Shown here in pieces: positions 24,128-28,474 of a DNA stretch of 64,000 nucleotides (positions are counted from its first letter, which is position 1; every line of letters begins with the position of its first letter). The notes under the pieces were generated by a model that saw only the letters and a program-made list of their open reading frames with translations, searched no databases and was not told the DNA's origin. The position numbers and the translations under genes were made by a program. The stretch comes from Pedosphaera sp. (GTDB lineage: Bacteria > Verrucomicrobiota > Verrucomicrobiia > Limisphaerales > SXQI01): NCBI GenBank assembly GCA_025359965.1, contig JANYDC010000028.1:62001-126000 (forward strand), given 5' to 3'.

Positions 24128-27100
24128 ATGCGCCTGCGCTCAATCGTGCATTTGGATGCCGACGCGTTCTTCGCCGCTGTTGAGCAGGCCTCCGATCCCA
24201 ACCTACGCGGCAAAGCCATCGCCGTGGGAGGTGAGAAACGGGGCATTATTGCCTCTGCCTCCTACGAGGCACGGGCCTTTGGGGTTTACACGCCCATGCC
24301 CACCGCCCATGCCCGCAAGCTCTGCCCCAAGCTCATTGTACTCCCCGGTGATTTCGAGCGGTATGAGCAGTTTTCCAATTGGATGTTTGGCTACTGCTAC
24401 GATTTCACCCCGGAGGTGGAACAAACCTCCATTGATGAGGGATACTTTGATTTAACCAGCTCTCGAAAACCCGCCGTTGAGGTGGCTGAAAAAATCAGAA
24501 AAGCCATTCGGCAAAAACTAAAGATCACTGTCAGCGAAGGCATTGCTTCCAACAAACTGGTCAGTGCCATCGCTTCGAAGCTGAACAAACCCTCCGCCTT
24601 CAGCGAGATCCGCCCCGGAAGCGAGAAAGAGTTCCTCCACCCGCTGGCCAATAAATGGCTGCCCGGGGTGGGCCCCAAAACCAGCGTGCGATTGAATGCG
24701 GCCGGACTGGCAAGAATCAGTCAGATTGCCCTCACACCGCCGGAGCTGCTCGAACTTATTTTGGGCAGGCAGGCCATGCAAATCCGTCAATTTGCCCAGG
24801 GTATCGATCCGCGTCCGCTGGTGCTCAGCCCGGAATCGCAAAAATCCTACAGCAAACAGGAGACCTTTAAGGAGGATCTGACTGACGAAAGCTATCTTTC
24901 GGCTGTTCTGCGGCGCATGGCCGATGAGCTGTTCGCGGATGTGCGCGCCGAGCGCCGCAGCATTCGCACCCTCACGGTCAAAGTCCGGTACAACGACATG
25001 GCCGAGGATCAGGTCAGCGAAAGCCTTTTGGAGCCGACCGATCTGGAGGCCGAGGTATACGGACGACTCGAAACCATGCTGCGCACCGCTTGGAAAAGAC
25101 GGGTCAGTGTGCGGCTGGTATCCCTAAAATTATCCAACCTTTACGACAGCCGCTTTCGCAGTGAACTCGCCTTGGGCAATGAGGGTATACGGAGGGAAGC
25201 CCGTTCCCGGCTGGCCGGAGTGGTCGACCTGCTTCGCAAGACCCACGGTGATGGGGTCATTCTGCACGGACACGATTTCCGCCTGCGGGAACCGCCCTCG
25301 GAATCCGCCAAGGTAACGCCAACGCCGCTCGTTAATTTGCCGTCAGTGTCCAAAGCAATTGCACCGCGCACCACCACCTCCGTCCCCCTGCGCGTTCACA
25401 GTTATTATTCCTTTCTTGATTCCACTCTGTCCCCAGCTGAAGTGGTGCGACTGGCTCATGAACGGGGCTTTCCGGCGGTGGCCCTGACCGATTATGGAAA
25501 CCTGCACGGAGCCTGTGCCTTTGCGGAAGCGGCCAAAAGCGAGGGTGTCAAGGCCATCTTCGGCACCGAACTTCGCGTCGGTTCCGCACCGCTGCTCCTG
25601 TATGTCCAAAATCAAACCGGATACGCCAACCTCTGCCGGCTTTTGTCATTGCACGCCAACCCCACTGCGGAGGGCGACGGAATCTCGGTCGCTTCCCGCC
25701 AAAGAGCGCCGCTGAGGGAAGCACTGTTGCACGGACTGACCGATGGACTGCTGGCGGTTAGCTCCGACCCCACCCTCGCAAAACTTTTTCCGGGTCGCTT
25801 TTATTTGGGGGGAGAGTTAGCCCGTCGTGGAAGCCTGCCCCATGCCCTTTGTCCGCCGGTGTTTTACGCTGATGCTTCGGACCGGCTGCGATACGACATT
25901 GTGCAGAGCATCCGAACACTTACCTTGCTCAGACAGCCTCATCCCGAGAAACGCGCGCAAGGTGGGTATCACTTTCGTTCGTCCGCCGAGTTATCAGCGC
26001 GTTTCAAAGACACTCCCGCGTCACTGCATGCCACCGTGGAAATTGCCGAGCGCTGCGAGTTCGAATTCCCCCTTGGAAAGCCGCAGTTCCCTCCATTCCA
26101 CACCCGGGACGGCTCGTCGTCCAAAGAATTTCTGAAGCGCACGGTTTTGAATGGATTGAAAATGCGTTATGACGGGAAAAAAATCCTTTCCGAACGTAAG
26201 ATGACCGTCTCCATGTCTCAGGTCATCGCCCAGGTGGAAACCGAACTTTCGATCATCACCGAGGTGGGTTACGAGGATCTGTTCCTCTCGACTTGGGAAC
26301 TGTTGCAAGTGTGCCGCCAACACGGCATCGAATGGATCACGCGCGGCAGCGCCGCCGACAGTCTGGTCTGCTACTGCCTGAGTATCTCCGAGGTTTGCCC
26401 CATCCGTTTCGGCCTATATTTCCGCCGTTTTCTGAACAAGGAGCGCATGGCCTTGCACAAACTCCCCGATATTGACATCGATTTTCCCCATGACCGTAAG
26501 GACGACGTGGTAAACCTGCTCTTTGCGCGGCACGGAAAGGAACACTGCGCGGTGGTTGGCGGTTTCTCCACCTTTCAAGCCCGCAGTGCTGTGGCTGACG
26601 TGGCCAAAGTGCTGGGGGTTTCAGAACACCAGATCCGCCGATTCACTGAACGCTTCCCGTGGAGCTTTGGTGGGGGCTGGGTTTCTGAGGATCACCATAA
26701 CTCGCGGGGCGCAGATCTTCTCGCCTTATTGAGGGCAAGTCCCGAATGCCGGGATATGCCCCTCGACGAGGAACCCTTTAAGACAGCGGTGGAAACCGCC
26801 GCTTTTCTCGACGGTTTTCCGCGCCATCCCAAAATGCATCCGTGCGGTGTGGTTCTTTCCAAGCAACCGATGCACGAGCTGACCCCTACTTTCACGTCCA
26901 ACAAAGGCTGGCCCACTACGCACTTCGACATGGACGCCGTGGAAGAGGTGGGATTGGTCAAGACCGACATCCTTGCCCAGGGTGGGCTGGCTGTGATGAG
27001 GGATGTAAGAGATTCATTGGCCAGCAAAGGGATCAAAGTGGATCTGGCCGCGTTGGAACCGTGGGAGGACCAAAAGGTTTGGGACATGATCTCCAGCGGC

Positions 27101-28474
27101 GGAGCAAGAGCCGTACATCACATCGAAAGCCCAGCCATGACCAATCTCTGCCAGATGTGTCACGTCGGGGAGATTGACGGTCTGGTAGCCATCGTGAGCG
27201 TGATCAGGCCCGGTGCGGCCAACGAACAAAAGAAGGTTAAATTCACCCGCCGTTACCAAGGTTTTGAGCTGCCGGAATATCCGGACCCATCACTGGAACC
27301 GTGTCTGCGAAGCACCTTCGGACTGGTGGTTTACGAAGAGCACATCCTGCAAATGTGCGAGGCGTTCGCGGGACTTTCTCCCGGTAGAGCTGATGTATTG
27401 AGGCGCTCACTGGTCAAACAGAAGTGGAAAGAAATAGAGGTAATTGGAAAGGAATTTACAGCCTCAGCTCTAGAGCGGGACCATCCCCCGGAAAAGATCA
27501 AGGAAGTCTGGGAACTGGTCACCGGCTTCAATGGATATGCCTTTTGCAAAGCGCATAGTACTGCCTACGGAGTGGAAGCCTATCAGGCGGCGTGGTTGAA
27601 ACTTTATCATCCCGCCGAGTTCATGGCGGCGGTCCTAACGAACGCCAAAGGTTTCTACCATCCCATTGTCTACGTTCTGGAGACCCGTCGGCTGGGGATT
27701 GGTTTTCTCCCCCCTTCGGTCAACGAGCCGGGACCGGCCTTCGTGCCCCAAGGCAATCTGATTCGAGTCCCGCTAACTCGCGCCAAAGGCCTGACTCAAA
27801 ACACCTGCGACCGCATGGTGGCAGCCCGCCGGGAAAAAAAATTCACTTCCATCCACGATTTTTTCCGCAGGGTCGCTCCGTCCGGGGAGGAGTTGGAGAT
27901 CATGCTGCGGGCCGGTGGTTTCGATGAATTCGGCGAAACCCGCACCAATCAGTTCTGGCAGGCCCAGTACCTTCTTAAGACCTTCACCTCAGCGCCATCG
28001 GCTCGGCAAGGCTGGCTGATCCCTCCTGCCGGATTGGACCGGCTTCCAGAGATTCCGTTGAAGGAGCCAACCCGGCAGGAACGACTGGTGTGGGAGGCCG
28101 AGCTTTACGGATACGCTGTGAGCGCGCATCCGCTCGAACTTTTTCCCGATATCGCATGGGAAAGCTATTGCCCGGTGAACCGGCTGGGCGAGTTTGTGGG
28201 TCGGATGGTGAAAACCTGCGGATTGATTGTCGAGCAACGCACCCACCATCAGATTACCGGCGAACCCATGAAATTCCTTTCATTGGCCGATCACACCGGG
28301 ATTATCGAAACAGAACTCTTCGCGCAGACCTACAAAACCTACGGATTGGCCACCGTGCGATATCCGGTTCTCGAAGTGGAGGCCAAAGTCGAACCCTTCG
28401 AAAACGGACGCGGCTTCAGCCTGCGGGTATTAAAAGCGGGCGAACCTAGGAAACGCTCCATTGGGTCCATTTAA
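24128..28474 (+). CDS. Fusion protein: N-terminal Y-family DNA polymerase (DinB/Pol IV-like, ~aa 1-395) + C-terminal C-family DNA polymerase III alpha (DnaE2/ImuC-like, ~aa 419-1448)
   Basis: Y-family: VHLDADAFFAAVEQASDPNLRGKAIAVGG, SYEARAFGVYTPMP, QTSIDEGYFDLT, GIASNKLVSAIASKLNKP. C-family: PHP-like VPLRVHSYYSFLDSTLSPAEVVRLAHERGFPAVALTDYGNLHG, catalytic PDIDIDFPHDRKDDVV and VKTDILAQGGLAVMRD, HAHR-equivalent KAHSTAYGVEAYQAAWLKLYHPAEFMAAVLTN, C-terminal OB region. One uninterrupted 4347-nt ORF. Confidence 0.93.
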   Translation: MRLRSIVHLDADAFFAAVEQASDPNLRGKAIAVGGEKRGIIASASYEARAFGVYTPMPTAHARKLCPKLIVLPGDFERYEQFSNWMFGYCYDFTPEVEQTSIDEGYFDLTSSRKPAVEVAEKIRKAIRQKLKITVSEGIASNKLVSAIASKLNKPSAFSEIRPGSEKEFLHPLANKWLPGVGPKTSVRLNAAGLARISQIALTPPELLELILGRQAMQIRQFAQGIDPRPLVLSPESQKSYSKQETFKEDLTDESYLSAVLRRMADELFADVRAERRSIRTLTVKVRYNDMAEDQVSESLLEPTDLEAEVYGRLETMLRTAWKRRVSVRLVSLKLSNLYDSRFRSELALGNEGIRREARSRLAGVVDLLRKTHGDGVILHGHDFRLREPPSESAKVTPTPLVNLPSVSKAIAPRTTTSVPLRVHSYYSFLDSTLSPAEVVRLAHERGFPAVALTDYGNLHGACAFAEAAKSEGVKAIFGTELRVGSAPLLLYVQNQTGYANLCRLLSLHANPTAEGDGISVASRQRAPLREALLHGLTDGLLAVSSDPTLAKLFPGRFYLGGELARRGSLPHALCPPVFYADASDRLRYDIVQSIRTLTLLRQPHPEKRAQGGYHFRSSAELSARFKDTPASLHATVEIAERCEFEFPLGKPQFPPFHTRDGSSSKEFLKRTVLNGLKMRYDGKKILSERKMTVSMSQVIAQVETELSIITEVGYEDLFLSTWELLQVCRQHGIEWITRGSAADSLVCYCLSISEVCPIRFGLYFRRFLNKERMALHKLPDIDIDFPHDRKDDVVNLLFARHGKEHCAVVGGFSTFQARSAVADVAKVLGVSEHQIRRFTERFPWSFGGGWVSEDHHNSRGADLLALLRASPECRDMPLDEEPFKTAVETAAFLDGFPRHPKMHPCGVVLSKQPMHELTPTFTSNKGWPTTHFDMDAVEEVGLVKTDILAQGGLAVMRDVRDSLASKGIKVDLAALEPWEDQKVWDMISSGGARAVHHIESPAMTNLCQMCHVGEIDGLVAIVSVIRPGAANEQKKVKFTRRYQGFELPEYPDPSLEPCLRSTFGLVVYEEHILQMCEAFAGLSPGRADVLRRSLVKQKWKEIEVIGKEFTASALERDHPPEKIKEVWELVTGFNGYAFCKAHSTAYGVEAYQAAWLKLYHPAEFMAAVLTNAKGFYHPIVYVLETRRLGIGFLPPSVNEPGPAFVPQGNLIRVPLTRAKGLTQNTCDRMVAARREKKFTSIHDFFRRVAPSGEELEIMLRAGGFDEFGETRTNQFWQAQYLLKTFTSAPSARQGWLIPPAGLDRLPEIPLKEPTRQERLVWEAELYGYAVSAHPLELFPDIAWESYCPVNRLGEFVGRMVKTCGLIVEQRTHHQITGEPMKFLSLADHTGIIETELFAQTYKTYGLATVRYPVLEVEAKVEPFENGRGFSLRVLKAGEPRKRSIGSI

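What the first reader, a model, noticed from the sequence alone, without database searches (positions are those of the whole stretch)
24128..28474. Single-polypeptide fusion of a Y-family (DinB) polymerase to a C-family (DnaE2-like) polymerase
SEEN: one uninterrupted 1448-codon ORF. Residues ~1-395 are DinB/Pol IV-like with both acidic motifs intact (LDADAFF, SIDEGYFD). Residues ~419-1448 are DnaE-like with the PDIDID and VKTDIL acidic motifs intact and a PHP domain whose metal-site motifs look degenerate (VPLRVHS, LTDYGN). KNOWN: in many bacteria error-prone DnaE2 (ImuC) works with a separate, catalytically dead Y-family homologue, ImuB, in lexA-imuA-imuB-dnaE2 cassettes. INFERENCE: here the partners are covalently joined, the Y-family half looks catalytically competent, and no imuA-like gene is present in the cassette. 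This would be a self-contained two-active-site translesion polymerase with possible in-cis polymerase switching. I do not know of a described fusion of this kind.
Basis: partly seen in the sequence, partly recalled or inferred. Interest (0 to 1): 0.87.

Follow-up and report, generated by a model that had tools for sequence, protein, structure and literature searches.

The report
Two DNA-damage polymerases in one protein
A group of Verrucomicrobiota bacteria make, as one protein chain under SOS (DNA-damage) control, two different mutation-prone DNA polymerases that other bacteria make as separate proteins, so one enzyme may both insert opposite damage and extend past it.

Summary
Window 24128-28474 (+) is one 1448-aa ORF: a DinB/Pol IV-type Y-family polymerase (about 1-395), a variable disordered linker (about 389-418) and a C-family DnaE-type polymerase (about 419-1436). 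It is no assembly accident: 70 full-length single-frame homologues were recovered, all from Verrucomicrobiota as far as names can be trusted, one of them in a one-contig genome. Catalytic acids of both active sites are invariant or nearly so in 61 distinct members, and both halves are under purifying selection (median dN/dS 0.054 and 0.082; linker 0.23). The proofreading PHP site is destroyed. The gene lies 4 nt after lexA; a LexA/S24 gene directly precedes it in 55 of 61 members, with a conserved LexA-operator-like dyad. In the host's 92%-complete assembly it is the only Y-family gene, beside the only lexA, a RecA, and no ImuA. Both halves are monophyletic among the sequences compared. The C half groups with DnaE2 partners of separate active Y polymerases (Bacteroidota dinB-dnaE operons), not with ImuC. 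So the ImuB/ImuC analogy is only partly right: this looks like a covalently fused DnaE2B-PolY mutasome. I found no description of the fusion in the literature held. Two working active sites and in-cis hand-over remain inference.

The parts
24128..28474 (+). Fused Y-family/C-family DNA polymerase, 1448 aa
24128..25147 (+). Y-family (DinB/Pol IV-type) polymerase half, aa 1-340; catalytic D10, D103, E104 conserved 61/61, 60/61, 61/61
   Evidence: Pfam IMS and IMS_C; NCBIfam DNA polymerase IV NF002677 267.7 bits, cut-off 256; conservation
25148..25291 (+). C-terminal helix of the Y half, aa 341-388, RecA-NT-like motif (candidate RecA-binding site)
   Evidence: query matches own RecA N-terminus (1 of 300 shuffles as good) and E. 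coli UmuC C-terminus (0 of 300 shuffles); helix 351-373 predicted
25292..25381 (+). Interdomain linker, aa 389-418; variable length (29-139 aa in the family, counted from aa 384 to 421), low predicted confidence
25382..26197 (+). PHP domain region, aa 419-690, with the metal site destroyed
   Evidence: Pfam PHP; alignment with own DnaE1
26198..27967 (+). C-family palm, fingers and HhH, aa 691-1280; catalytic D781, D783, D947 conserved 61/61
28007..28021 (+). QGWLI, aa 1294-1298, candidate beta-clamp motif (Q 43/61, fourth-position L 55/61)
   Evidence: function inferred from position only
28055..28435 (+). OB-fold region, aa 1310-1436; no tau-binding C-terminal domain of replicative DnaE follows
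23497..24123 (+). lexA (only full LexA in the genome); Ala-Gly cleavage site and Ser and Lys catalytic residues present; stop 4 nt before the fusion's ATG
23482..23499 (+). Inverted repeat TGTAGACATATGTCTAGT, candidate LexA operator

Best explanation
It is an SOS-controlled, single-chain translesion polymerase: a fused version of the DnaE2B-PolY type of mutasome. Shown: one reading frame; both active sites intact and under purifying selection; proofreading PHP site lost; flexible linker; lexA directly upstream behind an operator-like dyad; conserved across a bacterial group. Inferred: after DNA damage LexA is cleaved and lexA plus the fusion are expressed; the RecA-NT-like helix at the end of the Y half docks the enzyme on the end of a RecA filament at a gap or stalled fork; the DinB half inserts opposite the lesion; the primer end is passed within the same molecule, across the disordered linker, to the non-proofreading DnaE half, which extends past the lesion. 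Covalent linkage fixes a 1:1 ratio and keeps both polymerases at one primer end. Probability about 0.9 for SOS-linked translesion synthesis, about 0.6 that both active sites catalyse in vivo, about 0.4 for in-cis hand-over as the main working mode.
For: ORF and domains. 120/120 best hits share the architecture; 70 full-length single ORFs, 61 distinct, one in a one-contig genome (G490, L053). Catalytic acids conserved in both halves. Median dN/dS 0.054 (Y), 0.082 (palm/fingers), 0.233 (linker). PHP ligands lost. An S24/LexA gene upstream on the same strand in 55 of 61 members counting the window; 30 of 55 upstream regions have an 18-nt dyad with at least 8 of 9 complementary positions, against 0.4% of shuffles, and the exact TGTTC-N4-GAACA core is over-represented (18 of 55; shuffle maximum 2). 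Sole Y-family gene, sole full LexA, RecA present, no ImuA. C half groups with the partners of separate active Y polymerases. RecA-NT-like motif. Linker disordered, C half DnaE-like.
Against: No biochemistry or genetics exists here. At least three relatives carry the Y half as its own gene, nested inside the fused clade, so the linkage is not indispensable everywhere. The RecA-NT-like match is modest across the family (median shuffle p 0.02 against RecA, 0.08 against UmuC) and its glycine is deleted in 13 of 61 members, apparently the Verrucomicrobiaceae-type clade. The window's own operator is a weaker dyad (7 of 9) and the host recA promoter showed no matching site. The model of the Y half is of low confidence, and the relative placement of the halves is undetermined.
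Confidence: 0.7

Rival explanations
1. ImuB-like scaffold: the Y half mainly targets the DnaE half to lesions (through RecA and clamp contacts) and its own catalysis is dispensable; the DnaE half does the synthesis, as in ImuA-ImuB-DnaE2.
For: In the known ImuABC system the Y partner is a dead adapter (PMC6511836, PMC12926913); the RecA-NT-like helix lies just before the linker.
Against: Catalytic residues of the Y half are kept in 60-61 of 61 members and this half is the most constrained part (dN/dS 0.054); the Y half passes a Pol IV cut-off; the C half is not of the ImuC clade.
Confidence: 0.2
2. Fusion only for co-expression: two independent polymerases share one gene for equal dosage and LexA control, with no mechanistic coupling.
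For: Bacteroidota have the same pair in the same order with overlapping stop and start codons, so fusion is a small step; secondary splits exist; the linker is long and variable.
Against: Operon overlap already gives co-expression; the fused state is kept over deep divergence (about 46-71% identity) in many lineages.
Confidence: 0.25
3. Artefact: missed stop, frameshift or chimeric contig.
For: The host is a draft, probably metagenome-derived, assembly; no raw reads could be checked.
Against: 70 full-length single ORFs, including one in a one-contig genome, with the same junction region.
Confidence: 0.01
4. The DnaE half, or the whole protein, also does routine gap filling or replication rather than damage-specific synthesis.
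For: The fusion is the only Y-family gene of its genome, so it may carry housekeeping DinB roles.
Against: A separate DnaE1 next to recA exists; PHP is dead and the tau-binding domain absent; LexA linkage.
Confidence: 0.05

Closest known systems
DnaE2B-PolY-RecA putative mutasome of Bacteroidota (Timinskas and Venclovas, PMC6511836; Timinskas et al., PMC12926913)
   Same: Active Y polymerase plus DnaE2 partner, no ImuA, a RecA-NT motif on the Y polymerase, SOS-linked operon, same gene order Y then DnaE; nearest C-half branch outside Verrucomicrobiota in the tree
   Different: There the two polymerases are separate proteins; here they are one chain with a linker, and the upstream regulator is a LexA
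ImuA-ImuB-DnaE2 (ImuC) mutasome
   Same: SOS-linked, Y-family protein plus a DnaE without proofreading
   Different: No ImuA, Y half catalytically intact, no ImuB-C domain found by Pfam, C half outside the DnaE2A branch and below the error-prone polymerase cut-off
DinB / DNA polymerase IV
   Same: Y half passes the NCBIfam Pol IV cut-off (NF002677); sister in the tree to solo verrucomicrobial DinB
   Different: Carries a RecA-NT-like helix, a linker and a second polymerase
Pol V (UmuD'2C-RecA)
   Same: RecA-NT-like motif; in Verrucomicrobiaceae-type members a UmuD-like cleavable S24 protein of about 150 aa replaces LexA directly upstream
   Different: Y half is DinB-like, and a DnaE is fused

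Membership tests
ImuA-ImuB-DnaE2 mutasome | ImuA gene in cassette or genome | tested here: not met
   ImuA model NF033429 gives at best RecA at 48.8 bits, cut-off 150; assembly 92% complete
ImuA-ImuB-DnaE2 mutasome | Catalytically dead Y-family partner (ImuB) | tested here: not met
   D10, D103, E104 present and conserved
ImuA-ImuB-DnaE2 mutasome | DnaE2A/ImuC-type C-family polymerase | tested here: not met
   NF004225 498 bits against cut-off 939, while a verrucomicrobial ImuC scores 1332; separate branch in the tree
ImuA-ImuB-DnaE2 mutasome | LexA control | tested here: met
   lexA upstream and operator dyad across the family; binding itself not tested
DnaE2B-PolY-RecA mutasome | Active Y polymerase | tested here: met
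   by sequence only
DnaE2B-PolY-RecA mutasome | RecA-NT motif on the Y polymerase | tested here: inconclusive
   good in the query, modest family-wide
DnaE2B-PolY-RecA mutasome | C-family partner of the DnaE2B branch, no ImuA or ImuB in genome | tested here: met
   groups with Bacteroidota and Desulfosarcina partner DnaEs, SH-aLRT 97, with a long-branch warning and few references; genome searches
DnaE2B-PolY-RecA mutasome | Separate polypeptides in a complex | tested here: not met
   single chain; so filed as a fused variant, not a plain member
DNA polymerase IV (DinB) | Passes curated model cut-off | tested here: met
   NF002677 267.7 against 256 bits
Error-prone activity | Low-fidelity lesion bypass in vitro | not testable with these tools
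   needs purified protein

The most novel reading that the evidence does not exclude
A natural single-chain two-polymerase translesion enzyme in which a Y-family inserter and a C-family extender both catalyse and exchange the primer end within one molecule: an in-cis polymerase switch, conserved in part of one bacterial phylum and serving in some genomes as the only Y-family polymerase.
Probability: 0.4. Interest if true: 0.85.

Novelty: new variant of a known kind. Interest (0 to 1): 0.66.

Why it matters
How a stalled primer end is handed from an inserting to an extending translesion polymerase is a long-standing question that is hard to study because the partners come and go. A natural enzyme with a likely inserter and a likely extender on one flexible tether makes it testable with point mutants and linker changes in one protein. 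It also gives a covalent counterpart to the predicted, experimentally uncharacterised DnaE2B-PolY complexes, which supports their being real complexes.

Tried and rejected
Assembly artefact: rejected by the many fused copies. ImuC-type C half: rejected by model score and tree. ImuB- or UmuC-derived Y half: rejected by model scores; the Y tree agrees, but its ImuB and UmuC branches are very long, so it is weak there. Fusion in phages or plasmids: none found; the best plasmid records examined hold the two as adjacent genes, and no phage record covers 80% of the query. The Verrucomicrobia LexA motif TGTTC-N4-GAACA, recalled from memory, does not occur exactly upstream of the window's lexA and is at chance level in the window; the host genome's 6 sites are about the number I estimate by chance (about 5), so they are not used as regulon evidence. 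The window's own dyad has no convincing second site in the genome. An internal start in the linker giving a separate DnaE: only 15 of 61 members have a Met there, not supported. The fold of residues 1-700 gave a low-confidence Y palm (28-sequence alignment) and poor TM-scores, so no domain arrangement is claimed. Papers that could not be read: Erill et al. 2006 and 2016 (not held); supplements could not be opened.
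Full report
OBSERVATION. The ORF at 24128-28474 (+) is real: 1448 codons, ATG to stop, no interruption. Pfam places IMS at 9-151, IMS_C at 239-339, PHP at 421-547, DNA_pol3_alpha at 668-950, the finger domain at 954-1116 and HHH_6 at 1190-1273. NCBIfam puts the Y half over the cut-off of a DNA polymerase IV model (NF002677, 267.7 against 256 bits) and the C half over the DnaE superfamily cut-off (TIGR00594, 579 against 434), but far below the error-prone polymerase model (NF004225, 498 against 939).

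NOT AN ARTEFACT. All 120 best hits to the whole protein carry the same six domains at about 66-71% identity. A scan of genome contigs plus searches of related genomes gave 70 full-length single-frame fusions, 61 of them distinct, including one in a one-contig genome (G490, L053). Records name them Verrucomicrobia, Pedosphaera, Limisphaera, Limisphaerales, Verrucomicrobiaceae, Prosthecobacter, Phragmitibacter and Spartobacteria; a few labels (Akkermansia muciniphila, Klebsiella pneumoniae, an Acidobacteria bacterium) look like bin mislabels. By my count of the printed table, about half of the sampled genomes of the host's order (71 of 146) have a match better than 1e-120 to one or both halves, better than any other homologue in that sample reached. 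In a phylum-wide sample of 394 genomes only about four do. The distribution is patchy, but deep within one part of the phylum.

BOTH ACTIVE SITES ARE KEPT. Over 61 distinct members D10 is 61/61, D103 60/61 (one Glu), E104 61/61; in the C half D781, D783 and D947 are each 61/61. For 25 close pairs the median dN/dS is 0.054 for the Y core, 0.098 for the RecA-NT region, 0.233 for the linker, 0.144 for the PHP region, 0.082 for palm and fingers and 0.115 for the OB region. Neither polymerase is decaying; the Y half is the more constrained. The PHP site is destroyed: aligned with the host's own DnaE1, H to R, H to Y, the next His and the Cys lost with deleted segments, D to P and H to F. Comparison with E. 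coli DnaE ends at the OB region, so the tau-binding C-terminal domain of replicative DnaE is absent. The linker varies from 29 to 139 residues (counted from aa 384 to 421) and is predicted with low confidence, pLDDT under 50 at 393-414. The C half folds like bacterial DnaE (pTM 0.74; best match 7pu7, M. tuberculosis DNA polymerase III alpha).

ANCHORS. Just before the linker lies a helix (351-373) with a RecA-NT-like motif, RLAGVVDLLRKTHGDGVIL, which aligns with the E. coli UmuC C-terminus (0 of 300 shuffles as good) and the host's own RecA N-terminus (1 of 300). Family-wide support is weaker (median p 0.08 and 0.02), and 13 members lack the glycine. In the C half a QGWL[LIF] motif at 1294-1298 (Q 43/61, L 55/61) sits near where the clamp-binding motif of DnaE lies (from general knowledge); it is a candidate only.

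REGULATION. lexA ends 4 nt before the fusion's start and keeps the cleavage site and Ser/Lys residues. An S24/LexA gene lies directly upstream on the same strand in 55 of 61 members, counting the window. Verrucomicrobiaceae-type members instead have a protein of about 150 aa without the DNA-binding domain, UmuD-like, preceded in L084 by an SRAP-like gene. An unbiased search for dyads upstream of these genes found ACTGT-N8-ACAGT and TGTTC-N4-GAACA in 19 and 18 of 55 sequences (shuffle maximum 2). The latter is the motif that I remember as the published Verrucomicrobia LexA box (not checked; the paper is not held). A best-dyad test found at least 8 of 9 complementary positions in 30 of 55 against 0.4% of shuffles. 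The inner bases of the operator vary between lineages while the outer ACT/AGT and inner CA/TG are mostly held. The window has TGTAGACATATGTCTAGT at 23482-23499, a 7-of-9 dyad at the same place.

GENOME CONTEXT. The host assembly (5.14 Mb, 92% complete) has one Y-family gene, this one; one LexA over cut-off, this one; RecA next to a separate DnaE1; and no ImuA over cut-off. By my count of the printed table, in about 18 genomes of the order, the host included, the fusion is the only Y-family match, while others have an additional solo DinB.

ORIGIN. In trees, Y halves form one clade (SH-aLRT 99) next to solo verrucomicrobial DinB. C halves form one clade (100), sister to a solo verrucomicrobial DnaE (99), then to DnaEs that sit beside a separate Y polymerase in Adhaeribacter, Emticicia, Persicobacter and Desulfosarcina (97), apart from ImuC-type DnaE2 and DnaE1. 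These are quick trees with few references and some long branches. In Adhaeribacter and Emticicia the Y stop overlaps the DnaE start, so a fusion is a small step. Within the fused clade at least three genomes have the Y half as its own gene (G463, G459, G444), nested among fusions: secondary splits. A canonical lexA-imuA-imuB-dnaE2-type cassette also exists elsewhere in the phylum (L157).

MECHANISM. The best reading is a LexA-controlled, single-chain mutasome: RecA-directed recruitment, insertion by the DinB half, hand-over across the tether, and extension by the non-proofreading DnaE half. The parts, their conservation and the LexA linkage are shown; catalysis by both halves, RecA docking and hand-over are inferred.

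LITERATURE. Searching and partly reading the main texts of PMC3919608, PMC6511836, PMC12926913, PMC3765255 and PMC8565304 found no fusion of a Y- and a C-family polymerase, and phrase searches found none. The 2026 survey lists 11 types of DnaE2/PolY modules, all of separate chains in the text read. Supplements, preprints and the 2016 Verrucomicrobia LexA paper could not be checked, so novelty is provisional. Some databases already carry automatic names for these proteins, for example 'DNA polymerase III alpha subunit/nucleotidyltransferase/DNA polymerase involved in DNA repair' for P0073.

VERDICT. A real, conserved and apparently undescribed fusion; a new variant of a known kind (the DnaE2B-PolY mutasome), not an ImuB-ImuC fusion.

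Noticed in passing
18399-23371 (- strand): A ubiquitin-like (UBact) proteasome cluster: two proteasome subunits (one weak match), UBact, a Dop/PafA-type Pup ligase and an ARC/Mpa-type ATPase, divergent from the lexA-polymerase operon; the candidate LexA operator lies in the shared intergenic stretch. The neighbourhood was not found beside other fusions.
   Followed up: partly
L084, L097, L113 and similar loci, upstream of the fusion: In Verrucomicrobiaceae-type genomes a UmuD-like S24 protein (about 150 aa, no DNA-binding domain, cleavage and catalytic residues kept) replaces LexA directly before the fusion, in L084 with an SRAP-like gene before it.
   Followed up: partly
upstream of lexA in about 55 loci: The LexA operator's inner bases vary between lineages (GTTC, ATCC, GTCC, GCTC, ACTC, GAAC and others) while its outer and innermost bases are mostly held: a natural series for studying LexA-operator co-evolution.
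   Followed up: partly
L041 and L079: C halves are close sisters but Y halves are far apart (dN 0.06 against 0.21), suggesting exchange of Y halves between fusions.
   Followed up: no
G463 (L165, L166), G459 (L169), G444 (L170): Secondary splits of the fusion; in G463 and G459 lexA stays with the Y half, and in G463 the C half lies on another contig.
   Followed up: partly
JAIPJY01 (L094, L097, L112), JABARQ01 (L101, L104), G487 (C31, C41): Some genomes carry two or three fused copies.
   Followed up: no
L063, L072, L079, L119 record titles: Likely mislabelled metagenome bins: Akkermansia muciniphila, Klebsiella pneumoniae and Acidobacteria labels on Limisphaerales-like DNA.
   Followed up: no
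28584-30665 (+): Downstream gene with collagen repeats, YadA head repeats and a peptidase S74 chaperone domain, tail-fibre or adhesin-like; no sign that it belongs to the operon.
   Followed up: no
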